Shown here one piece after another: positions 5,892 to 18,912 of a DNA stretch of 64,000 nucleotides. The notes under the pieces are model-generated. The model worked only from the letters and a program-made list of their open reading frames with translations, was not told where the DNA came from and did no database searches. Source of the DNA: Sphingomicrobium aestuariivivum (lineage in GTDB: Bacteria > Pseudomonadota > Alphaproteobacteria > Sphingomonadales > Sphingomonadaceae); the NCBI RefSeq assembly GCF_024721585.1, contig NZ_CP102629.1:124001-188000 (forward strand), in the 5' to 3' direction. The stretch's first letter is position 1. Every line of letters starts with the position of its first letter. Position numbers and translations under genes: made by a program.

Positions 5892-6985
5892 GGCAGGTCG
5901 GGGAAGGCTTCGGCCACCGCCGCGTGGCGGATCTTGCCGTCCGAGACGTTGAGACCGTTGGCGAGGTGCGCGTCGGTCGCCATCGCCAGTTCGGCGCCCT
6001 TGTCGGCAAGCGCCACCGCATGGGGCAGCGTCGCATTGTTGAGCGCGAAGGTCGACGTACGCGCCACCGCGCCGGGCATGTTGGCCACGCAATAATGGAT
6101 GACGCCGTCGACTTCGTAGACGGGGTCGTCGTGGGTGGTCGGCTTCGAGGTTTCGAAGCAACCGCCCTGGTCGATCGCGATATCGACGATGACCGTTCCG
6201 CGCTTCATGAGCTTGAGCATTTCGCGGTCGACGAGCTTGGGCGCCGCCGCACCCGGCACCAGCACGGCGCCGATGACGAGATGGCTTTCCTCGAGCGCGC
6301 GTTCGATCATCGGCTTGGAGGCATATTGCGTCTTGATCGTCGAACCGAAATGCAGGTCGAGTTCGGCGAGGCGGTCGGGGTTGATGTCATAGATGGTGAC
6401 ATCGGCACGCATGCCGGTCGCCATCATCGCCGCGTTGATGCCGGCCACGCCGCCACCGATGATCGCGACCTTGCCCGGGTTCACGCCCGGCACGCCGCCG
6501 AGCAGCACGCCGCGGCCGCCCTTTTCCTTTTCGAGGTAATGCGCGCCGGCCTGGATCGACAGGCGGCCCGCGACCTCGCTCATCGGCTTGAGGAGCGGCA
6601 GCGTGCCGGCATCGCTCGTCACCGTCTCGTAGGCGATGCAGGTCGCGCCCGACTTGATCAGGCCTTCAGTCTGCGGCCGGTCGGCGGCGAGGTGGAGGTA
6701 GGTGTACAGGATGTGCCGCGGCTCGAGCATGGCGACTTCCTGCGGCTGCGGCTCCTTGACCTTGACGATCATGTCGGCGGCCTCGAAGACCGACTTGGCG
6801 TCGGGCATGATCTTCGCACCCGCCGCCACATAGTCCTCGTCGCTGAAGTCGATACCGCTGCCCGCCTTCGTCTCGACGAACATCTCGTGACCGCGCGCGG
6901 CGAGATGGGCGACCGACGACGGCGTGAGGCCGACGCGATATTCGTGGTTCTTGATTTCCTTGGGCACGCCGATGCGCATGCTCAT
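5870..6985 (-). CDS. ald: Alanine dehydrogenase
   Basis: A 371-residue NAD-dependent enzyme interconverting L-alanine with pyruvate and ammonia. It opens with the family pattern IGVPKEIKNHEYRVGL, holding the substrate-binding R17, then VKVKEP (K75 and K77) and YLHLA (catalytic H98). A central Rossmann motif reads VAIIGGGVAGINAA. I start it at the ATG at 6985, because GAGGAGA lies a few bases upstream; the next ATG (6979) is the other option. It converges on and slightly overlaps ccmI. Confidence 0.96.
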   Translation of the reverse strand: MSMRIGVPKEIKNHEYRVGLTPSSVAHLAARGHEMFVETKAGSGIDFSDEDYVAAGAKIMPDAKSVFEAADMIVKVKEPQPQEVAMLEPRHILYTYLHLAADRPQTEGLIKSGATCIAYETVTSDAGTLPLLKPMSEVAGRLSIQAGAHYLEKEKGGRGVLLGGVPGVNPGKVAIIGGGVAGINAAMMATGMRADVTIYDINPDRLAELDLHFGSTIKTQYASKPMIERALEESHLVIGAVLVPGAAAPKLVDREMLKLMKRGTVIVDIAIDQGGCFETSKPTTHDDPVYEVDGVIHYCVANMPGAVARTSTFALNNATLPHAVALADKGAELAMATDAHLANGLNVSDGKIRHAAVAEAFPDLPYEPVAA

Positions 6986-7010
6986 GTCTCCTCTACTGAC
7001 AATGGCCGCG

Positions 7011-7039
7011 CCTATAGACATCCAGCGCCGATTTGTCCC
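7011..7039 (-). promoter_or_regulatory. Possible ald promoter
   Basis: Reading leftwards, GGGACA (7039-7034) and TATAGG (7016-7011) are 17 bases apart and about 25 bases upstream of the ald start. The -10 box is good; the -35 box matches TTGACA at only four positions. Confidence 0.35.
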
Positions 7040-7102
7040 CCGCTAAAAGCCGGTTCGCTCGCCCGAGGTGAACGGCAGGGGCGCCTCATGCATTGAGCCG
7101 TG

Positions 7103-7669
7103 ATGGAAGATGTCGCCCGCCTCGTCGCGCCGATCGCGATCACCGTCGCCGCGCTGGTCACCGCCTCCAACCTCGGGGCAAGGATCACCGGCATCGGCTT
7201 TGTCATCTTCACCATCGGCTCGGTCGCCTGGTTCATCGTCGGCCTGACGACGGGGCAGGGCGGGCTAATGTGGCAGAATGTCGTCCTCTTCTTCATCAAC
7301 ATCTTCGGTGTGTGGCGCTGGCTCGGCCGGCGCGCGGCGATGGAGAAGGGCGGCGAGGACGCGCAGCGCCAGAGCGAGGAGGGCGCTGGGCAGGGGCTGG
7401 TGCCGCTGTCGAAATTCGTGGGGATGGAGCTTTGCAATACCGACGGGACGAAAGTGGGCGGCATCGTCGATGCCATGCTCGGCGAGCGTGACGGGCGCCT
7501 CGTCTACGCACTCGCCTCGACCGGCGGCGTCGCGGGCGCCGGCGAATCTCTCCACCGCGTCGACTGGCGCGAATTGCGCCTCGCTGACGGCAGCTTGCGC
7601 CTCGGCGAGTCGGCAGCGGCGCTCGGCACACGCCCCGCGGTCGAGCGCGACCATTGGCCGAGCGCATGA
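7103..7669 (+). CDS. Small membrane protein with C-terminal PRC-barrel-like domain
   Basis: A 188-residue protein of unassigned function. The first 75 residues hold three hydrophobic segments (about 8-24, 30-49, 57-73) ending in a WRWLGRR positive boundary, so the rest is probably cytoplasmic. The C-terminal part, from about residue 100 (SKFVGMELCNTDGTKVGGIVD), looks like a PRC-barrel: short beta strands in the order 'motif, glycine turn, V-G-x-I-x-D', as in PRC proteins. A GTG sits directly before the chosen ATG. It overlaps the next gene by four bases. The PRC assignment is a visual resemblance only. Confidence 0.6.
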   Translation: MEDVARLVAPIAITVAALVTASNLGARITGIGFVIFTIGSVAWFIVGLTTGQGGLMWQNVVLFFINIFGVWRWLGRRAAMEKGGEDAQRQSEEGAGQGLVPLSKFVGMELCNTDGTKVGGIVDAMLGERDGRLVYALASTGGVAGAGESLHRVDWRELRLADGSLRLGESAAALGTRPAVERDHWPSA

Positions 7670-8184
7670 GCGGGGCGCTCATCGTCACCGCTGCCCTGGG
7701 CAAGGCCGATCATGGCCGGCTGACCGCCGAGCGCACCGCGCATTTCCCGCCCGAGCGTAACTATCTCGATGCGCACCTGACCATGTTTCACGCCCTGCCG
7801 CCAAGTGCGGAGGCCGAGGCGAGCGGCGTGCTGTCGCGCCTCGCCCGAGAGCATCGCGCGCCCGATGCCAGGCTCGCCAGCCTGATGTCGCTGGGGCGGG
7901 GGGTGGCCTATAGGGTGGAGAGCGAGGAGCTGGTGCGGCTGCGCGCGCTCGTCGCCGACCATTTTTGCGGGCTCCTGACCGCACAGGACAGCGGCGGGTG
8001 GCGTCCCCATGTCACGATCCAGAACAAGGTGACCCCCGCCGAGGCCAAGGCGCTGCTGGCGGCGAAACAGGCCGAGTTCACCCCGCGCCCGCTGAAAATC
8101 GCGGGGCTGGCGCTCTATCGCTACATGGACGGGCCGTGGGACGCGCTGGGGCGTTGGGCCTTTTCGGGCAAGGCGCGGCCTTAG
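7666..8184 (+). CDS. 2H phosphoesterase / 2'-5' RNA ligase-like protein
   Basis: A 172-residue protein with the two H-x-T motifs that define the 2H phosphoesterase superfamily: HLT (37-39) and HVT (115-117), about 78 residues apart. Both lie in the expected hydrophobic strands. Family members hydrolyse cyclic phosphates or 2'-5' bonds in RNA or small nucleotides; the substrate here is unknown. ATG 7666 overlaps the preceding stop as ATGA, suggesting translational coupling. A TTG at 7654 is an alternative. Its end overlaps the convergent DUF3775 gene by four bases. Confidence 0.8.
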   Translation: MSGALIVTAALGKADHGRLTAERTAHFPPERNYLDAHLTMFHALPPSAEAEASGVLSRLAREHRAPDARLASLMSLGRGVAYRVESEELVRLRALVADHFCGLLTAQDSGGWRPHVTIQNKVTPAEAKALLAAKQAEFTPRPLKIAGLALYRYMDGPWDALGRWAFSGKARP

Positions 8185-8594
8185 GTGACCGAACCCACAT
8201 TGTCGCAATCGAGGTCGAACACGGCCATGCCCTGTTCGAGCATCGAGGCAAGCATCGGGGTCTCGAGCAGCGTCTCGACGATATTGCTGTCCTCGCCAGC
8301 GGTCTCGAGCGCTTCCTTCCACTCGTTTTTCTCATAGTCGCCGCGACCGAGCAGCACGAAGGCAAGCACTTCGGCCTGCTGGTCGTCGGCAAGGTCGTCG
8401 ATCACCCCCGCCAACTCCTCCTCGACACTGGTGTTGATGTCGTCGTCGAGTACCGAAAAGGCCTCGTCGTCATCATCGCCGTCGACATTGTCGGGGCTCT
8501 CGTCACTGTCGTAATTGGTCGGGATCTGCGCTTCATATTCGCGGGCGCGGAGGATGATGCGGCAGAGCGTGTCGATCGGTGTTGCGGGTTCCAT
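8181..8594 (-). CDS. DUF3775-type acidic protein
   Basis: A 137-residue cytosolic protein. The opening PATPIDTLCRIILRAREYEA is the recognisable N-terminus of DUF3775 proteins. A very acidic stretch follows (about 29-62, rich in D and E), then a helical domain that holds LAFVLLGRGDYE. Function is unknown in the family. I chose the ATG at 8594 because the longer reading adds 21 residues unlike the family. No strong ribosome-binding site is visible. Confidence 0.72.
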   Translation of the reverse strand: MEPATPIDTLCRIILRAREYEAQIPTNYDSDESPDNVDGDDDDEAFSVLDDDINTSVEEELAGVIDDLADDQQAEVLAFVLLGRGDYEKNEWKEALETAGEDSNIVETLLETPMLASMLEQGMAVFDLDCDNVGSVT

Positions 8595-8662
8595 ATGTGC
8601 CCATCTTTCGAATGTTCGAATTGCCCATCCAACGAGGGGTGAAGATCGCGGTTCCAAAGCGA

Positions 8663-8691
8663 TTGACGAACATGGAAGTCGTCCTTATAGG
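8663..8691 (+). promoter_or_regulatory. Promoter of tRNA-Met
   Basis: TTGACG (8663-8668) and TATAGG (8686-8691) are separated by exactly 17 bases. The -10 box ends 42 bases before the mature tRNA. This is the best sigma-70-type promoter I can see in the window. Confidence 0.6.
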
Positions 8692-8733
8692 CTCGCATCC
8701 GCAGCGACGGATTGCCGTCGCCAAGGCCCATGG

Positions 8734-8810
8734 GGCGGAGTAGCTCAGCTGGTTAGAGCAGCGGAATCATAATCCGCGTGTCGGGGGTTCAAGTCCCTCC
8801 TCCGCTACCA
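8734..8810 (+). tRNA. tRNA-Met (anticodon CAT, elongator type)
   Basis: A 77-base cloverleaf with encoded CCA. The acceptor GGCGGAG pairs with CTCCGCT (first pair G-U), the D stem is GCTC/GAGC, and the anticodon stem GCGGA/TCCGC encloses ATCATAA with anticodon CAT. The T arm contains GGTTCAAG. Because the first pair forms (G-U), an initiator tRNA, which has an unpaired 1-72, is unlikely. The acceptor and D-arm sequence resemble elongator tRNA-Met rather than the lysidine-modified tRNA-Ile(CAT). Confidence 0.93.
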
Positions 8811-8834
8811 TTTCCCCATCACATCGCTGTTGCG

Positions 8835-9197
8835 CTAGCGAAAGGCGCATTTTGCCGCGGAGGTCGAGATGACCAGCGCCGCCTCGGGGTCGTTCCACGC
8901 CGCGACATGGTCGATGAGGAGCGCCACGGTCATGCGTTCGCGGTCGGCCTTCAGCCGCTTGGCGAAGCGCGAGACGTCGCGGATCTGGTCGGTCGACAGG
9001 CGGTCGACCCACTCGCCCGCCATGCAGGATGCCATTTGCGGCGGCACGCCCGCATCGGCGAGGCTGCTCTCGACCCGTTGCTCGGTCACGCTCGCGCAGC
9101 CGGCTAGCAGGAAAAAGGCGGCGAGGACGCCCGTTGACCGGGGCACCCGTCGCCGCCTGTGCGGTCGCTCCCCGACTGGATGGGGTTGGCAGGCCAT
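8835..9197 (-). CDS. Small putative lipoprotein
   Basis: A 120-residue protein with an unusually arginine-rich N-region (RPHRRRRVPR, 11-20), a hydrophobic core and the lipobox LLAGC (C34), so it should be lipidated and membrane-anchored. The mature part is mostly helical (SSLADAGVPPQMASCMAGEW...). No family is recognised. GGAAAG upstream of the ATG at 9197 is a plausible ribosome-binding site. It lies between tRNA-Met and proB, on the same strand as proB. Confidence 0.65.
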   Translation of the reverse strand: MACQPHPVGERPHRRRRVPRSTGVLAAFFLLAGCASVTEQRVESSLADAGVPPQMASCMAGEWVDRLSTDQIRDVSRFAKRLKADRERMTVALLIDHVAAWNDPEAALVISTSAAKCAFR

Positions 9198-13649: not shown

Positions 13650-14279
13650 CTAATATTCGCGCGCGAAGAGGATGGCCCGGAAACCGCGGTAGATGCGCTC
13701 GTCATAAGCGCGGAACCCCAGTTTGCGGGCGATATGGATCGAGGCCAGGTTTTCGTGATGCACCATCGCGACGGTGCGCGTGGCGATCAGCCGGTCCTCG
13801 GTGAACTGCAGTGCGGCGAGCGCGGCTTCCTGCGCATAACCACGGCCCTGGAAGGGCTTGCGGATGGTCCAGCAGGCTTCGGGATTGCCGTCGAAGCCCT
13901 GACCGATCTCGCGGTTGAAATTGCCGAAGCCGACCTCGCCGACGAAATGGCCGCTGTGCTTTTCGAAAACGGCGAAGAGGCCGTAATCGAGGAGCGTCCA
14001 GTGGCCGACCTGGCGGCACAGGCGGGTAAAGGCTTCGTCCGAACCCATCGGACCACGGTCGGAATAGGTGAAGGCGTCGGGATCGGCGAGCATCGCCGAA
14101 TAGGCCGGAAGGTCATCGATCGTGACGGGGCGCAATTGCAGCCGCTCGGTCTCGACGAAGCATTCGGCGAAGATGAGGTCCTTGGCGACATCCTTGGTGA
14201 TGTCGCGCATCGCGGCGTGGGCGAGCATGCTGCTCAGCTTGCCGTCGACGGCCTCGTTGATCTCGTTGGTGTCGAACAT
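13650..14279 (-). CDS. GNAT family N-acetyltransferase (RimJ/RimL-like)
   Basis: A 209-residue acetyltransferase. After a 40-residue N-terminal extension comes ETERLQLRPVTIDDLPAY, the usual start of RimJ/RimL-type GNATs, then GEVGFGNF and the acetyl-CoA loop PFQGRGYAQEA (consensus Q/R-x-x-G-x-G/A), with NLASIHIARKLGF near the end. Substrate unknown. GGAGAG lies just before the ATG at 14279. It is downstream of the 39-residue peptide gene and on the same strand. Confidence 0.85.
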   Translation of the reverse strand: MFDTNEINEAVDGKLSSMLAHAAMRDITKDVAKDLIFAECFVETERLQLRPVTIDDLPAYSAMLADPDAFTYSDRGPMGSDEAFTRLCRQVGHWTLLDYGLFAVFEKHSGHFVGEVGFGNFNREIGQGFDGNPEACWTIRKPFQGRGYAQEAALAALQFTEDRLIATRTVAMVHHENLASIHIARKLGFRAYDERIYRGFRAILFAREY

Positions 14280-14364: not shown

Positions 14365-14484
14365 TCAGGCAACGAGCACTTCCTGCTCGGCCGGGGCATT
14401 GGCGCCCATGATGCTGATGGTGCCGCCGAAGGTGCTGGCGGTCAGGACGATGGCCAGAAGGCCGATGAAAGCTTGGTTGAACAT
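14365..14484 (-). CDS. Small membrane peptide, 39 residues
   Basis: A short frame encoding a peptide that begins MFNQAFIGLLAIVLTASTFG, one hydrophobic helix, then a short polar tail ending in EQEVLVA. The support for coding is a clear GGGAGA ribosome-binding site before the ATG at 14484, a position opposite a regulator gene with a shared upstream region, and a protein-like hydrophobic pattern. The segment TASTFGGTISIMGAN could contain a signal-peptidase site. Function unknown. Confidence 0.55.
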   Translation of the reverse strand: MFNQAFIGLLAIVLTASTFGGTISIMGANAPAEQEVLVA

Positions 14485-14653
14485 TTCGCGTCTCCCTTTT
14501 GGTGTCTTGGACCCTGCTCGGTCTCGACATCCTCCTTCTACGGCGTCGGGGACCCGACATCTTGGGAAGCAAGCCAAAAGAATCTGACTCAGAATCTTTT
14601 CAGAATTGGCGGAAGGCACTAGAAAGCGGTCTTTGCTCGGGGGAAAACTGCGA

Positions 14654-16249
14654 ATGCCGACGGCTCGTCGTGCCAGGATTGCGATTGGCGAATTTCTGAT
14701 CGACCGTGGGGACGAGCGCGTCACCGGTCCTCAGGGGCCCGTCAAGCTCGGCAACAAGGCGTTCCAGGTGCTCTGCGCGCTGGCCGAGCGCGAGGGGCGG
14801 CTCCTGACCAAGGATGCTCTGTTCGAGAGCGTGTGGGACGGCATGGCCGTATCCGAATCAGCGCTCACCACCACGGTTCGCGAACTGCGCCGTGCGCTCG
14901 GCGATGATCCCCGCCACCCGCGCTATATCGAAAGTGTCTACGGCCGAGGCTATCGCCTCGTCGCCGACGTGCGCGAGGAAGACGGAGACAGCGCACCGCA
15001 GGAAGCTCCCGCCAGGACCCCGGCAAAGCCTCCGAAAAAGGAAGCTGCGGCCCGCGCCCCGATGAAGGGCCTCGAGGCGGGGCGCCCGCCGCGCATCTCC
15101 GTCGGCGATTTCAAGGATGATGCGGTCGCCGAAAAGCACCCCTATCTCGGCGCCTCGATGCGCGAGGAAGTGCTGCTCGGCCTGTCACGTTTTCGCGAGA
15201 TCCAGGTCGTCGATGCGCCGCTCAACCCCGAAGAGGTCAACGAGCGCGACTATCGTCTCGACGTGAAATTCCTGCCCGCCCCCTCTGGGGCAAAGGCCAA
15301 TGTGCGGCTCCAGCGCGCACAGGACGGCGGCGTCGTCTGGGCCGAGATGATGCTGATCGAGGACGAGGGCGTTGGCGCGGGCGTCGAGACCATCGTGCGC
15401 CAGATCGTCGGTGCCGCCATGCCGGCGCTCGACCAGGACATCTCGATCGGCATCGGCGACAATGCCGGCACGCTGTTCGACCGCTATCTCGTCGCCAAGC
15501 GGCAGAGCGTGGAAGCGCTCGACCGTGCCACCGCCGAGGATGCCGCGCGGCAGCTCGAGGCGATCATCGCCGAAAAGAGCGATTTCGCGCTCGCCTATCC
15601 GCCGCTCTGCCGCCTCTACAATATCGACTATGGCTATACCGCCCTGGGGGCCTCGGGGGCGGTCGAGCGCAAGCGCGCGCTCGATCTTGCCAAGGAGGGG
15701 CTCGCGGCCGACCGCAGCCATGTCCACAGCTATACGCTGCTCGGCTTCTGCCATCTCTATCACGCCGAATTCGACCAGGCCAAAAGCTGCTTCGAGCATG
15801 CGCTGAAGCGCAATCCCTTCAACCCCGACCGGCTGAACGAGGTCGCGACCGGCATGACCTATCTCGGCGATTTCGACCGCGCACGGCACCTGTTCGAACA
15901 GTCGGACGGCATCCAGCCCTTTGCCGACGACAACAGCCAGGAGGACCTCGGCCGCCTCGCGCTGCTCGAAGGCGACATGGACGCCGCCCGCGAGCATTTC
16001 TCGCGCGTCACCGTGGCCTCGCTCTGGTCGCAGCTGTGCAGTGCGATCACCCTGTTCGACAAGGACCGGAAGACGGGCGGCAAGGCGGTCGCCCGCTGGA
16101 AGGCGCGTGTCCATGAAGGCTGGCACCGCCCGATCCCGCCGACCGATGACGAGATCATCGCCTGGTTCCGCTTCCACCATCCCTTCCGCGACGATGCCGG
16201 CAAGCCCTACATCGACCTCGTCACCGAAGCGCTCACCGACGACAGCTGA
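14654..16249 (+). CDS. Winged-helix (OmpR/CadC-type) transcription regulator with TPR domain
   Basis: A 531-residue protein. Residues about 8-100 form an OmpR/PhoB-type winged helix, seen in VKLGNKAFQVLCALAEREGR, LLTKDALFESVWDG, and the recognition-helix region ESALTTTVRELRRALGDD. A proline/alanine linker follows (about 105-140), then a TolB-N-like alpha/beta part (ISVGDFKDD, EVLLGLSRF) and tetratricopeptide repeats (about 290-440). Unlike CadC, it has no membrane span, so it should act in the cytosol. GGGGGAA precedes the ATG at 14654. It is divergent from the 39-residue peptide gene. Confidence 0.8.
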   Translation: MPTARRARIAIGEFLIDRGDERVTGPQGPVKLGNKAFQVLCALAEREGRLLTKDALFESVWDGMAVSESALTTTVRELRRALGDDPRHPRYIESVYGRGYRLVADVREEDGDSAPQEAPARTPAKPPKKEAAARAPMKGLEAGRPPRISVGDFKDDAVAEKHPYLGASMREEVLLGLSRFREIQVVDAPLNPEEVNERDYRLDVKFLPAPSGAKANVRLQRAQDGGVVWAEMMLIEDEGVGAGVETIVRQIVGAAMPALDQDISIGIGDNAGTLFDRYLVAKRQSVEALDRATAEDAARQLEAIIAEKSDFALAYPPLCRLYNIDYGYTALGASGAVERKRALDLAKEGLAADRSHVHSYTLLGFCHLYHAEFDQAKSCFEHALKRNPFNPDRLNEVATGMTYLGDFDRARHLFEQSDGIQPFADDNSQEDLGRLALLEGDMDAAREHFSRVTVASLWSQLCSAITLFDKDRKTGGKAVARWKARVHEGWHRPIPPTDDEIIAWFRFHHPFRDDAGKPYIDLVTEALTDDS

Positions 16250-16934
16250 GCCCCTCGCGCAGCACCTTCTGGAAATGCGTCTCGGGTAGCAGGGAGGGCG
16301 GCTGGCTTTGGCTCCTGTCGGCCTTCGCCGCCGCGATCGCCACATGTGCATCGAGCGCCTTGAGCCGGACATGCCGCTTCTCGAGCATCGGCCCGATGCC
16401 GGGGGCAATGTCCTCGGCAAGCTTTCGCATCACCACCCATTCGCGATCCACATAGTGGATTTCGTGGAACGCCGCCCGCAGGCGCCGCGCGGTCCTGCCA
16501 TCGACCAGCCCCTCACGCCGTGCGGCCACCAGCGTCGCGCGCACCTCGACGATCGGCACGCTGACGGCCTTCCAGCCGATCCGCGCATCGCCATGGACCA
16601 GCGCCACCTCGTCGTCACCGACCAGCAGCCCCGTTCGATAGGCGCGCGCGATGACGCCGAGCGGCCGCATGCCGAAGTCCGCCAGCTCGGCGGCGCGCAA
16701 CGCCCCCATGCTCGAGGCGCCGTAGAGCCGCGTGCCCGCTGCCATCAGCGCGAGCGCTTCCTTGTGCGTGACTGCGGCCACTTCATCGAACAGGCCGTCG
16801 AGGAGGAGTACCTTGGCGGGCGCCTCGTTGACAAGCGCGAGCAGGTCTCCGGCCACGGCGGGCGGCCGCCAGTCGATGCCGGTATGGCGCGCGCGATCGG
16901 GGGCAGGGACGGAAGGGCCGGCGAAGACGATCAT
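16233..16934 (-). CDS. TfuA-like protein, partner of YcaO
   Basis: A 233-residue TfuA-family protein. Diagnostic blocks are VFAGPS (3-8), DGLFDEVAAVTHKE (46-59), YGASSMGALRAAEL (71-84) and DDEVALVHG (107-115). TfuA partners stimulate YcaO enzymes; with YcaO, a TfuA installs the peptide thioamide in methanogen McrA, and tfuA genes occur in the trifolitoxin locus. ATG 16934 overlaps the ycaO-like stop as ATGA, so the two proteins are probably made together. Its 3' end overlaps the convergent regulator gene by 17 bases. Confidence 0.9.
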   Translation of the reverse strand: MIVFAGPSVPAPDRARHTGIDWRPPAVAGDLLALVNEAPAKVLLLDGLFDEVAAVTHKEALALMAAGTRLYGASSMGALRAAELADFGMRPLGVIARAYRTGLLVGDDEVALVHGDARIGWKAVSVPIVEVRATLVAARREGLVDGRTARRLRAAFHEIHYVDREWVVMRKLAEDIAPGIGPMLEKRHVRLKALDAHVAIAAAKADRSQSQPPSLLPETHFQKVLREGLSCRR

Positions 16935-18058
16935 CGGCGGCGCCCCTTCGCCAGCGTGCCGAGCCCGGGAACGAAGGCCCGCACCACGTCGAACCCCTCG
17001 ACCTGCGCGATGGGCAGGAAGGCCAGTTCGTCGAACCCGTTGGCCGCAAGCCGCTCTGCCAACGCGTCGATGCTTGCAGGCCCGGGCGGGATGGCGGCGA
17101 AGTCGAGGCCCGCAAGATCGCTCGTCGGCGCCGGCGGGGCGAAGGCCGCGAAGGAAGAGCCCTCGCGATATTGCCAGGGATAGCAGTCGTCGCGCGCGGC
17201 GGCGATATAGGTCAGCCGCCCCTGTGCCGCCTCGGCGACGGTCTGGAACAGCGCCTGTTCGGGGTCGGGATGGGCGGCATGGCCGACGATCGCGCCATAG
17301 GGCGTGGCGTTCTTGCCATAATCACGGAGCAGGGCGCCGAAGACGGGGGTGCCGGTGAGGCTGGGCAGGACGAAGACCCGGAGCGAGCAGCCGGTCGAAT
17401 GCACCCGCTCCCGCAGCGCTGCAAACCAGTCGTAGGGGATGGTGTCCGGGCGGATTTCGAGCTGGAGCTTGTGAACGAAATCGCTCGCTTCGAACGCCCA
17501 CCGCGCATCGCGTTCGATCAGTTCGTGGAGCGCCGAGTGCCGCGCTTCCTCGGGACCATGTCCGGTCGCAAGGCCAGCGCTGGCCCGTTCGAAAGGACTG
17601 TCATGAAAACGGGTGAAGTCGAGCGAGACAGCCTCGAAGGGCACGCACAGCGTGCCGCCGCCGTGGCGTTCGGTCGCGACCCAATCGACCTCGCGGTCGG
17701 TTGGGGGCGGGGCGGCGCGGTCTGCCGCGAAATCGGCAAAATCCCTGACCCGACCCGCCTCGGGCAGCGCGTCCCAGCACGCCTTCTCGACCGGTCCGTC
17801 ATAGCGTTCGGCGGCATCGCTCTCGACCGCCTCGAGCAGGGCGCCGAGCCGCGCGGCATCCGCGCTGGCGCCCTTGCCCTGGTGGACCGAGAGCGCCCGC
17901 GAGGCAGGACGGATCGCCTGCCAGACGGGCAAGCCGATACGATCGAGGCGGGTGACGTCCGCAAGCCGCGTGACGCCCGCCTTCGCGGCCGCACGCCGTG
18001 CAGCGGAAAGCAGCGCGCCGGGATCGGCGGCGCGCTGCCGGTCGCTCGGAAAGATCAT
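16931..18058 (-). CDS. YcaO-domain protein (TfuA-associated type)
   Basis: A 375-residue YcaO enzyme, expected to use ATP to activate a peptide backbone amide. All three ATP/Mg-binding blocks are present: EAVESDAAERY (76-86, with E76, E79 and E84), ALHELIERDA (176-185) and EAAQGR (276-281). The early LDRIGLPVWQAIRP (38-51) and late FVPGLG (363-368) are typical of TfuA-linked YcaOs. The proline-rich C-terminus of azoline-forming YcaOs is absent, which favours thioamidation over cyclodehydration (inference). It begins 14 bases after the stop of the 90-residue gene. Confidence 0.92.
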   Translation of the reverse strand: MIFPSDRQRAADPGALLSAARRAAAKAGVTRLADVTRLDRIGLPVWQAIRPASRALSVHQGKGASADAARLGALLEAVESDAAERYDGPVEKACWDALPEAGRVRDFADFAADRAAPPPTDREVDWVATERHGGGTLCVPFEAVSLDFTRFHDSPFERASAGLATGHGPEEARHSALHELIERDARWAFEASDFVHKLQLEIRPDTIPYDWFAALRERVHSTGCSLRVFVLPSLTGTPVFGALLRDYGKNATPYGAIVGHAAHPDPEQALFQTVAEAAQGRLTYIAAARDDCYPWQYREGSSFAAFAPPAPTSDLAGLDFAAIPPGPASIDALAERLAANGFDELAFLPIAQVEGFDVVRAFVPGLGTLAKGRRR

Positions 18059-18072
18059 CCGCTAGGCTTGGA

Positions 18073-18345
18073 TCAGCCGCTGGTGCCGGTATTGACCGGA
18101 TTGTAGGGCGGGGGCGTTTCGAAGCCGACCGCGACATAGGCGGTATGTTCGCTCACCACCTCGTCCTGGAACTTCTTCTTCACGTCCTTGACGCCCTGGA
18201 TCTTCTCTTCGCGCTGCGGTCCGGGCGGCAGCCCTTCGGCGACCTTCATGTCATAGGTAAGGAGCGCGCCGGTGGTCATGTAATAAACCCCGTCGACGAG
18301 GATGATGAACTTGTTCTTGTTCGGCTTTTGCGGTTCCTGGGCCAT
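18073..18345 (-). CDS. 90-residue protein heading the YcaO-TfuA operon; candidate modified substrate
   Basis: A small protein I cannot match to a family. It has a proline/lysine-rich start (1-12), a hydrophobic strand-like block (FIILVDGVYYMTTGALLTYD, 13-32), a GLPPGP turn, a lysine-rich amphipathic helix (about 45-60) and a C-terminal tail rich in Pro, Asn, Thr, Ser and Gly (PPPYNPVNTGTSG). It contains no cysteine. AGGGGAA lies just upstream of the ATG. Its position directly before ycaO-like and tfuA-like genes makes it a candidate precursor or target protein, but it could equally be an accessory binding protein. Confidence 0.7.
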   Translation of the reverse strand: MAQEPQKPNKNKFIILVDGVYYMTTGALLTYDMKVAEGLPPGPQREEKIQGVKDVKKKFQDEVVSEHTAYVAVGFETPPPYNPVNTGTSG

Positions 18346-18427: not shown

Positions 18428-18793
18428 CTAGCGAACTTGCGGATCATCCTCGTGCATCGCGCGGCGCCGCCACGGCACCACGCCCTCGATCTCGGTCTCG
18501 AGGCTGAAGGACAGGAAGGTGCGGATGAGGACGATCAGGCCGAGCAGTCCGACCGACTCCCACGTCAGCGGCGCGGTCACCGTGAAGATGATGTCGGCGG
18601 CCACCAGCAGTTCGAGGCCGAGCAGGATGCCGCGCCCGAGGTTGGCGCGGAATTTCTCATAGGCTTCGCGATGGGCATTGCTCGTCAGGCAGGCCCTAAT
18701 GAACAGGATCGTCGCCACCATGATGCCGATGCAGATCGTGGCGATCCCGGCGATTTCGATAGCTGCGGCGATGGCGAGCAGGGTGTCGTGCAC
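18428..18793 (-). CDS. DUF1622 membrane protein
   Basis: A 121-residue inner-membrane protein with three hydrophobic segments. The stretch containing RGILLGLELLVAADIIFTV is typical of DUF1622, whose function is unknown. The chosen GTG at 18793 follows a strong GGAAGGAAG and begins just before the first helix. A longer reading from 18964 adds a basic, low-complexity stretch that does not look like protein. It is upstream of the YcaO operon on the same strand, 82 bases away. Confidence 0.8.
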   Translation of the reverse strand: MHDTLLAIAAAIEIAGIATICIGIMVATILFIRACLTSNAHREAYEKFRANLGRGILLGLELLVAADIIFTVTAPLTWESVGLLGLIVLIRTFLSFSLETEIEGVVPWRRRAMHEDDPQVR

Positions 18794-18912
18794 GGCACTT
18801 CCTTCCAGCCTCGTAACGATCCGGCGCAATGCTGGTTGCACTTGCGCCACGCGCTTCACCGTATTAGGCCGGTAACACGGATGGTATTTTGTATTCAAAC
18901 AGGGGGATTGAA

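What the first reader, a model, noticed from the sequence alone, without database searches (positions are those of the whole stretch)
16233..18345. Compact YcaO-TfuA operon led by an unknown 90-residue protein
Three reverse genes are packed tightly: a 90-residue protein, then a YcaO enzyme 14 bases later, then a TfuA partner overlapping by ATGA. All ATP-binding blocks of YcaO and the diagnostic TfuA blocks are intact. Established knowledge: TfuA-YcaO pairs introduce thioamides into peptide backbones. Inference: the first gene encodes the substrate, modified in its C-terminal PPPYNPVNTGTSG tail or elsewhere. No transporter, protease, E1-like protein or dehydrogenase is adjacent, so the product may stay in the cell as a modified protein rather than be an exported peptide.
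Basis: partly seen in the sequence, partly recalled or inferred. Interest (0 to 1): 0.85.

Follow-up and report, generated by a model that had tools for sequence, protein, structure and literature searches.

The report
New thioamide-peptide gene family in sphingomonads
A small protein is encoded together with two enzymes predicted to swap oxygen for sulfur in a protein backbone, and its conserved, sometimes repeated tail marks it as their probable target in a little-known family of sphingomonad gene clusters.

Summary
The three genes are real and as described. The 90-residue protein is very probably the substrate. In the window's genus a homologue sits directly before ycaO-tfuA in 9 of 9 genomes with tfuA, and a family profile finds none in the other 52 of 61. 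In 40 loci (39 sphingomonad, one unassigned alphaproteobacterial), 38 carry a small protein of this kind or a core-only ORF beside ycaO or tfuA. It has a conserved N-terminal domain (predicted to fold) and a flexible tail, often ending x-[NQ]-[TI]-[GED]. Relatives repeat the tail motif, up to six times (SxxFANTEPP, Sphingosinicella LHD-64, pN/pS 0.12). This is the anatomy of a precursor peptide.

In the genus, regulator and GNAT orthologues occur only with tfuA.

Best reading: a sphingomonad branch of YcaO-TfuA thioamidated peptides, like thiovarsolin in logic but with a folded leader and a linked regulator. Thioamidation, release and role are inferred. Whether the product stays in the cell is open. 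My paper searches listed no description of it.

The parts
18073..18345 (-). Small protein, 90 aa: proposed precursor/substrate
   Evidence: ORF; homologue before ycaO in 9 of 9 tfuA-plus genus genomes; profile absent from 52 of 52 tfuA-minus ones
18157..18312 (-). Residues 12-63 of the small protein: conserved folded N-terminal domain (proposed built-in leader)
   Evidence: alignment; AlphaFold2 model, strands 14-17, 20-24, 28-31, helices 33-37, 43-63
18085..18096 (-). V84-N85-T86-G87 of the tail: proposed core
   Evidence: tail motif statistics (motif chosen after seeing the tails); repeats in relatives
16931..18058 (-). YcaO enzyme, 375 aa
   Evidence: PF02624; aligned to solved M. jannaschii MJ1094, E 1e-16
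16233..16934 (-). TfuA partner, 233 aa
   Evidence: PF07812; aligned to solved TfuA 6xp8, E 8e-23
14654..16249 (+). Winged-helix/TPR regulator, convergent (the open frame starts at TTG 14606; first ATG 14654)
   Evidence: PF00486 and TPR models; full-length orthologues only in the 9 tfuA-plus of 61 genus genomes; found in 36 of 40 loci
14576..14600 (.). 25-bp palindrome between regulator and hydrophobic ORF/GNAT: candidate operator
   Evidence: 11 sites with at most 6 mismatches in 587 kb, each just before a regulator gene
14365..14484 (-). Hydrophobic ORF of 39 aa, role unknown
   Evidence: conserved in 7 of 9 genus loci; no family
13650..14279 (-). GNAT acetyltransferase, 209 aa: proposed tailoring enzyme
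   Evidence: PF13302; orthologues only in the 9 tfuA-plus of 61 genus genomes; in 13 of 40 loci

Best explanation
The operon makes a thioamidated peptide or protein. The 90-residue protein is the precursor: its folded N-terminal domain (about residues 12-63) is a built-in recognition domain (leader), and its flexible C-terminal tail carries the core x-[NQ]-[TI]-[GED], here V-N-T-G. YcaO spends ATP to activate a backbone amide in or next to this core; TfuA supplies sulfide from a thiocarboxylated ThiS-type carrier (one ThiS-family protein is in the genome); the product is a thioamide (+15.98 Da). The linked winged-helix/TPR regulator controls the locus and probably itself through the palindrome; the linked GNAT may acetylate the released peptide. 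Shown here: gene structure, conservation, co-inheritance, leader/core anatomy, repeated cores in relatives. Inferred: the chemistry, the modified amide, the operator function, the GNAT's role, and any release or export.
For: Co-occurrence 9 of 9 against 0 of 52 in the genus. Small protein directly before ycaO in 36 of 40 loci, after tfuA in L044, core-only ORF after tfuA in L096. With each taxonomic group left out, a profile ranks the curated protein first among all six-frame ORFs in 34 of 37 loci. [AVLIQ][NQ][TI] in the last 30 residues of 26 of 40 precursors (shuffles mean 3.4, none of 5000 as high) and in 13 of 24 group representatives (mean 2.3, none of 5000). Six SxxFANTEPP units in L046, pS 0.84, pN 0.10; three ANI[GE]D in L044, two AQT in L047 and L049, two ANI in L096, five GQMI[ED] in L051. 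AlphaFold2: folded 14-63, tail without secondary structure (pLDDT 79.5). Ile (L044, L096) or Phe (L022) in the Thr place argues against a ring on the Thr side chain. One YcaO and one ThiS-family protein in the genome.
Against: No chemistry was observed. 14 of 40 precursors lack the tail motif, and the motif was chosen after seeing the tails. The leader profile is weak (E 0.01-0.5) or fails in the divergent genera (failures L088, L092, L093), and leaving out the whole 27-member similarity cluster gives only 20 of 37. L046's repeat ORF and L096's ORF carry cores without the leader domain, and L096 has no leader protein in 14 kb. L035 has tfuA-ycaO without such a protein. GNAT and palindrome are missing from most genera.
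Confidence: 0.7

Rival explanations
1. The small protein is modified but not cut: a thioamidated intracellular protein whose tail works while attached to the folded domain.
For: No protease or transporter stands at a constant place near the operon; the folded domain is more widely conserved than the tail.
Against: Tandem cores in L046, L044, L047/L049, L051 and L096 fit separate peptides; thiovarsolin has no specific protease in its cluster (PMC6511847, passages read).
Confidence: 0.25
2. The small protein is the substrate, but YcaO forms an azoline or other dehydrated ring at Thr/Ser of the core instead of a thioamide.
For: Many YcaO enzymes are cyclodehydratases (recalled); Thr or Ser is the commonest residue after Asn/Gln.
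Against: TfuA is the neighbour, no E1-like partner or dehydrogenase was seen, SagD-family score 70 bits against a cut-off of 219, and Ile or Phe replaces Thr in L044, L096, L022.
Confidence: 0.08
3. The small protein is not the substrate but a recognition or adaptor protein for YcaO-TfuA; the target is another protein.
For: L046 and L096 have core-like ORFs without the domain, so the domain could act in trans; the domain is the most conserved part.
Against: Most leader-bearing proteins carry the core-like tail themselves, including L044 with three cores behind one leader.
Confidence: 0.1
4. The trio is a housekeeping system that modifies a ribosomal protein (as E. coli YcaO does uL16), with the small protein a bystander.
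For: It is the only YcaO in this genome.
Against: Present in 9 of 61 genus genomes only; NF040716 score 16 bits against a cut-off of 700; uL16-type YcaO genes have no TfuA near them (PMC13063428, passage).
Confidence: 0.03

Closest known systems
Thiovarsolin biosynthesis, var cluster of Streptomyces varsoviensis (PMC6511847, passages read)
   Same: Adjacent YcaO and TfuA, a precursor whose relatives carry repeated cores, no specific protease in the cluster, N-acetylated product (here a GNAT is linked in some genera)
   Different: Different precursor family and core (APR against x-[NQ]-[TI]-[GED]); no heme-oxygenase-like, ATP-grasp, amidinotransferase or MFS gene seen here; a folded leader and a convergent winged-helix/TPR regulator instead. 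'Folded leader' is not excluded for var by anything I tested.
TfuA-YcaO of methanogens that thioamidates McrA (PMC5589413, abstract; TIGR03266, NF033432)
   Same: Same enzyme pair; the YcaO and TfuA here score best or near best against these models
   Different: Both far below the curated cut-offs (125.8 of 365; 138.7 of 235.2); McrA is an archaeal enzyme subunit, here the target is a small operon-encoded protein
E. coli YcaO acting on uL16 (PMC13063428, abstract and passages)
   Same: YcaO thioamidation that recognises a folded protein without a separate recognition domain
   Different: No TfuA there; uL16 is a ribosomal protein encoded elsewhere; NF040716 not met here (16 of 700 bits)
Proteobacterial TfuA clusters mined by antiSMASH/RiPPER (PMC8120280; abstract, results parts 1 and 2 of 3, term search)
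   Same: 70% of the 2,326 unique clusters are proteobacterial; this would be one more precursor family
   Different: Main text names no sphingomonad and no TPR or winged-helix partner; supplements could not be read, so the family may be listed there unnamed

Membership tests
YcaO-TfuA thioamidated RiPP | YcaO gene with intact YcaO domain | tested here: met
   PF02624 over cut-off; conserved blocks
YcaO-TfuA thioamidated RiPP | TfuA gene adjacent to ycaO | tested here: met
   PF07812 over cut-off, ATGA overlap
YcaO-TfuA thioamidated RiPP | Small precursor gene with conserved leader and distinct C-terminal core | tested here: met
   by sequence only
YcaO-TfuA thioamidated RiPP | Repeated core (seen in thiovarsolin, not required) | tested here: inconclusive
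   single core in the window; repeats in L044, L046, L047, L049, L051, L096
YcaO-TfuA thioamidated RiPP | Thioamide in the product; peptide released from the leader | not testable with these tools
   needs mass spectrometry
McrA-glycine thioamidation pair (TIGR03266, NF033432) | Curated equivalog score | tested here: not met
   125.8 of 365 and 138.7 of 235.2 bits
Azole-forming YcaO cyclodehydratase (SagD type) | Subfamily score and E1-like/dehydrogenase partners | tested here: not met
   70.1 of 219.25 bits; no such partner among shared neighbours (by eye)
Ribosomal-protein YcaO (NF040716) | Equivalog score | tested here: not met
   16.1 of 700 bits
RRNPP-type peptide-sensing regulators (recalled) | HTH plus TPR regulator that binds a peptide encoded beside it | tested here: inconclusive
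   TPR regulator and small gene are inherited together, but the DNA-binding domain is OmpR/CadC-type and peptide binding is not testable here

The most novel reading that the evidence does not exclude
The thioamidated tail peptide is the ligand of the linked winged-helix/TPR regulator: a Gram-negative, RRNPP-like signalling or self-monitoring circuit in which the oxygen-to-sulfur backbone swap makes the signal protease-resistant and the palindrome is its switch.
Probability: 0.12. Interest if true: 0.88.

Novelty: new variant of a known kind. Interest (0 to 1): 0.62.

Why it matters
The mining study says that all TfuA-YcaO thioamidated RiPPs known by 2021 came from Actinobacteria, while 70% of the unique mined clusters are proteobacterial (PMC8120280, results part 1). 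This family offers a compact three-gene Gram-negative test case with a defined substrate family, a predicted core, natural repeats and residue swaps for mapping the modified amide, and a linked regulator and acetyltransferase that may show what such peptides do for the cell.

Tried and rejected
Photosystem PsaE resemblance of the tail (E 0.63): not listed with the 27-row profile, taken as chance. Anti-phage defence: no PADLOC match for five proteins. Fold relatives: of 121 PDB matches with E up to 10, none had E up to 0.001. Relatives of the small protein in viral contigs and in a first genome-contig scan with the single sequence: none. Genus profile A1 in the order: 7 of 296 genomes, although TfuA is in 10 of 296, so it misses divergent relatives; in the class: only the window genome of 385, a sample spread over the class. 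A motif shared by the stretches before the small gene in the genus nine: none convincing. A harsh hold-out of the leader profile gave 20 of 37, the group hold-out 34 of 37. misread the regulator end of L039 (false gap 1597). One search gave the hydrophobic ORF in a wrong frame; repeat it correctly. The DUF1622 protein upstream has counterparts in only 2 other genus loci and was left out.

Rows dropped before the counts over 40 loci: nine non-sphingomonad loci (L054-L062), six duplicates of named records (L091, L095, L097, L100, L102, L106), and L016, L018, L021, L034, replaced by the named copies L039, L040, L041, L048. L035, L036 and L096 were not in the leader hold-out because they have no curated leader protein; scored apart, L036 gave E 1e-6, L035 only 0.51, L096 nothing. 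Curation of the 40 small proteins was by hand and before the tests.
Full report
WHAT IS THERE. The three minus-strand genes are present as stated, with the 14-base gap and ATGA overlap. Pfam confirms YcaO and TfuA; the 90-residue protein has no Pfam or NCBIfam match up to E 1. Its 26 aligned relatives have only scattered weak ones (best E 0.0024 in Pfam; 5 of 27 members at best E 0.0047 to one NCBIfam 'hypothetical protein' model). YcaO aligns with M. jannaschii MJ1094 (6pe3, E 1e-16) and TfuA with 6xp8 (E 8e-23). The 2.35-Mb genome holds one YcaO and one ThiS-family protein.

CO-OCCURRENCE. TfuA is in 9 of 61 genus genomes. All 9 have a homologue of the small protein directly before ycaO, the eight others 33-62% identical. 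A profile of 27 relatives (A3) hits the same 9 at E up to 0.01 and none of the other 52, of which 38 are at least 90% complete and at most 5% contaminated. In the family sample TfuA is in 29 of 387 genomes, 16 of 96 genera. Profile A3 hits 19 of 318; 18 are tfuA-plus, and G903 is marginal (E 0.006, stop in frame). The positives are partly circular, since A3 was built from such loci; the absences are not. Misses among tfuA-plus genomes of that sample cannot be counted from the listing.

THE WIDER LOCUS. In all nine genus loci a convergent winged-helix/TPR regulator follows tfuA, and a GNAT gene divergent from it comes next. Between these two lie a 39-residue hydrophobic ORF in 7 of 9 and a palindrome in 8 of 9. 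Six loci share one left flank; L020, L021 and L022 each have another, so the block is kept together across different surroundings. Full-length regulator orthologues (468-1238 bits) exist only in the nine; the next match is 101 bits over residues 20-144. GNAT orthologues (186-475 bits) likewise, the next 105 bits.

FORTY LOCI. From I assembled 40 loci: 39 sphingomonad and L053, an alphaproteobacterial MAG of unstated family (dropped rows: see Tried and rejected). By hand curation a small protein lies directly before ycaO in 36. It lies after tfuA in L044, and a core-only ORF lies after tfuA in L096. L036 is eroded: its tfuA match is split over two frames, while a leader is still recognised. L035 has none; there a 577-aa ORF that by eye carries ThiS-, rhodanese- and ThiF/MoeB-like parts stands beside ycaO. 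A regulator homologue is found in 36 of 40 (E up to 1e-4), convergent right after tfuA in 34. In distant genera it is only 23-40% identical and often matched over the TPR part; the winged-helix domain itself was checked only in the window and L034. Ends were parsed in 33 of the 34; in 29 the two genes overlap. The GNAT is in 13 of 40: nine Sphingomicrobium, four Sphingosinicella. Among ORF families shared by three or more of 17 locus groups (38 loci, within 7 kb, read by eye) the core genes and their antisense frames dominate. A LolD-like ABC ATPase occurs in 3 groups and a small secreted protein in 5, at varying places and strands. No protease, E1-like protein or dehydrogenase was recognised.

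LEADER AND CORE. The proteins share F-[IV]-I...G...Y-x-T...Y-D, a helix, an A-V strand and a tail. With each taxonomic group left out, the profile ranks the curated protein first among all six-frame ORFs in 34 of 37 loci: E 6e-4 to 3e-10 for the window's genus, down to 1e-16 elsewhere, but 0.01-0.5 or no hit in divergent genera. Leaving out the whole 27-member similarity cluster gives 20 of 37. AlphaFold2 gave pLDDT 62 with 9 rows and 79.5 with 27: three strands and two helices in residues 14-63, no regular structure in 64-90. No solved fold matches at E up to 0.001. Tails end in V-N-T-G in the window and AQTNP, AQTDPP, QQTWG or LNTGP elsewhere. [AVLIQ][NQ][TI] occurs in the last 30 residues of 26 of 40 precursors (shuffles mean 3.4, none of 5000 as high) and 13 of 24 group representatives (mean 2.3, none of 5000). 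The pattern was chosen after seeing the tails, and 14 of 40 lack it.

REPEATS. A small ORF of Sphingosinicella sp. LHD-64 holds six SxxFANTEPP units (one reads TESP). Between units pS is 0.84 and pN 0.10, ratio 0.12, so the peptide is kept while its codons drift. L044 has ANIGD, ANIGD, ANIED; L047 and L049 have two AQT units; L051 has GQMI[ED] five times; L096 has two ANI units. Thiovarsolin, a YcaO-TfuA peptide, comes from repeated cores, is an N-acetylated APR with a thioamide between Pro and Arg, and has no specific protease in its cluster (PMC6511847, passages read). Ile or Phe instead of Thr in L044, L096 and L022 argues against a ring on the Thr side chain.

OPERATOR. AAAAGATTCTGA-N-TCAGAATCTTTT lies between regulator and hydrophobic ORF/GNAT. 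In 587 kb of loci 11 sites have at most 6 mismatches, each just before a regulator gene: eight Sphingomicrobium, two Sphingosinicella, one Blastomonas; the other loci with a regulator lack it. In the window it is the only match with up to 3 mismatches, none in 100 shuffles. Autoregulation and shared control of the GNAT are inferred.

MECHANISM. Shown: genes, conservation, co-inheritance, leader/core anatomy. From papers: TfuA is described as a hydrolase working with a thiocarboxylated ThiS-like carrier to pass sulfide to thioamide-forming YcaO (PMC13063428, passage; its source, Liu et al. 2021, is not held); YcaO-TfuA pairs are needed for thioamides in McrA (PMC5589413, abstract) and thiovarsolin (PMC6511847, passages). 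Inferred: the target amide lies in or next to [NQ]-[TI]-[GED]; the folded leader is bound directly, comparable to E. coli YcaO, which needs folded uL16 (PMC13063428, passages); the GNAT acetylates the product; the regulator answers to a cue or to the product.

KNOWN OR NEW. The listings showed no paper whose title or abstract start describes this family; only four of the listed papers were opened. PMC8120280 (abstract, results parts 1 and 2 of 3, term search) counts many proteobacterial TfuA clusters but its main text names no sphingomonad; its supplements could not be read. I rate it a new variant of a known kind: YcaO-TfuA chemistry with a new precursor family, a folded leader and a linked regulator.

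Noticed in passing
window 14576-14600; also L039, L040, L017, L019, L020, L041, L023, L042, L043, L048: A 25-bp palindrome stands before the regulator gene in 11 loci and nowhere else in 587 kb of loci at up to 6 mismatches.
   Followed up: partly
window 16233-16249; 29 of 33 parsed loci: The convergent tfuA and regulator genes overlap at their 3' ends in 29 of 33 loci, by 8 to 188 bases; such lasting overlap of opposed genes is unexplained.
   Followed up: no
L035 (G280), 6081-9050: A ycaO-tfuA pair without the small protein, next to a 577-aa ORF that by eye joins ThiS-, rhodanese- and ThiF/MoeB-like parts: a possible built-in sulfur supply.
   Followed up: no
L046, 7673-7927: An 84-aa ORF made almost wholly of SxxFANTEPP units, without the leader domain, between a leader-bearing precursor and ycaO.
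   Followed up: partly
window 18428-18796: A DUF1622 membrane protein lies just upstream of the operon; counterparts are at the same place in only two other genus loci.
   Followed up: partly
window 14365-14484: A 39-aa hydrophobic ORF of no known family, conserved between regulator and GNAT in 7 of 9 genus loci.
   Followed up: partly
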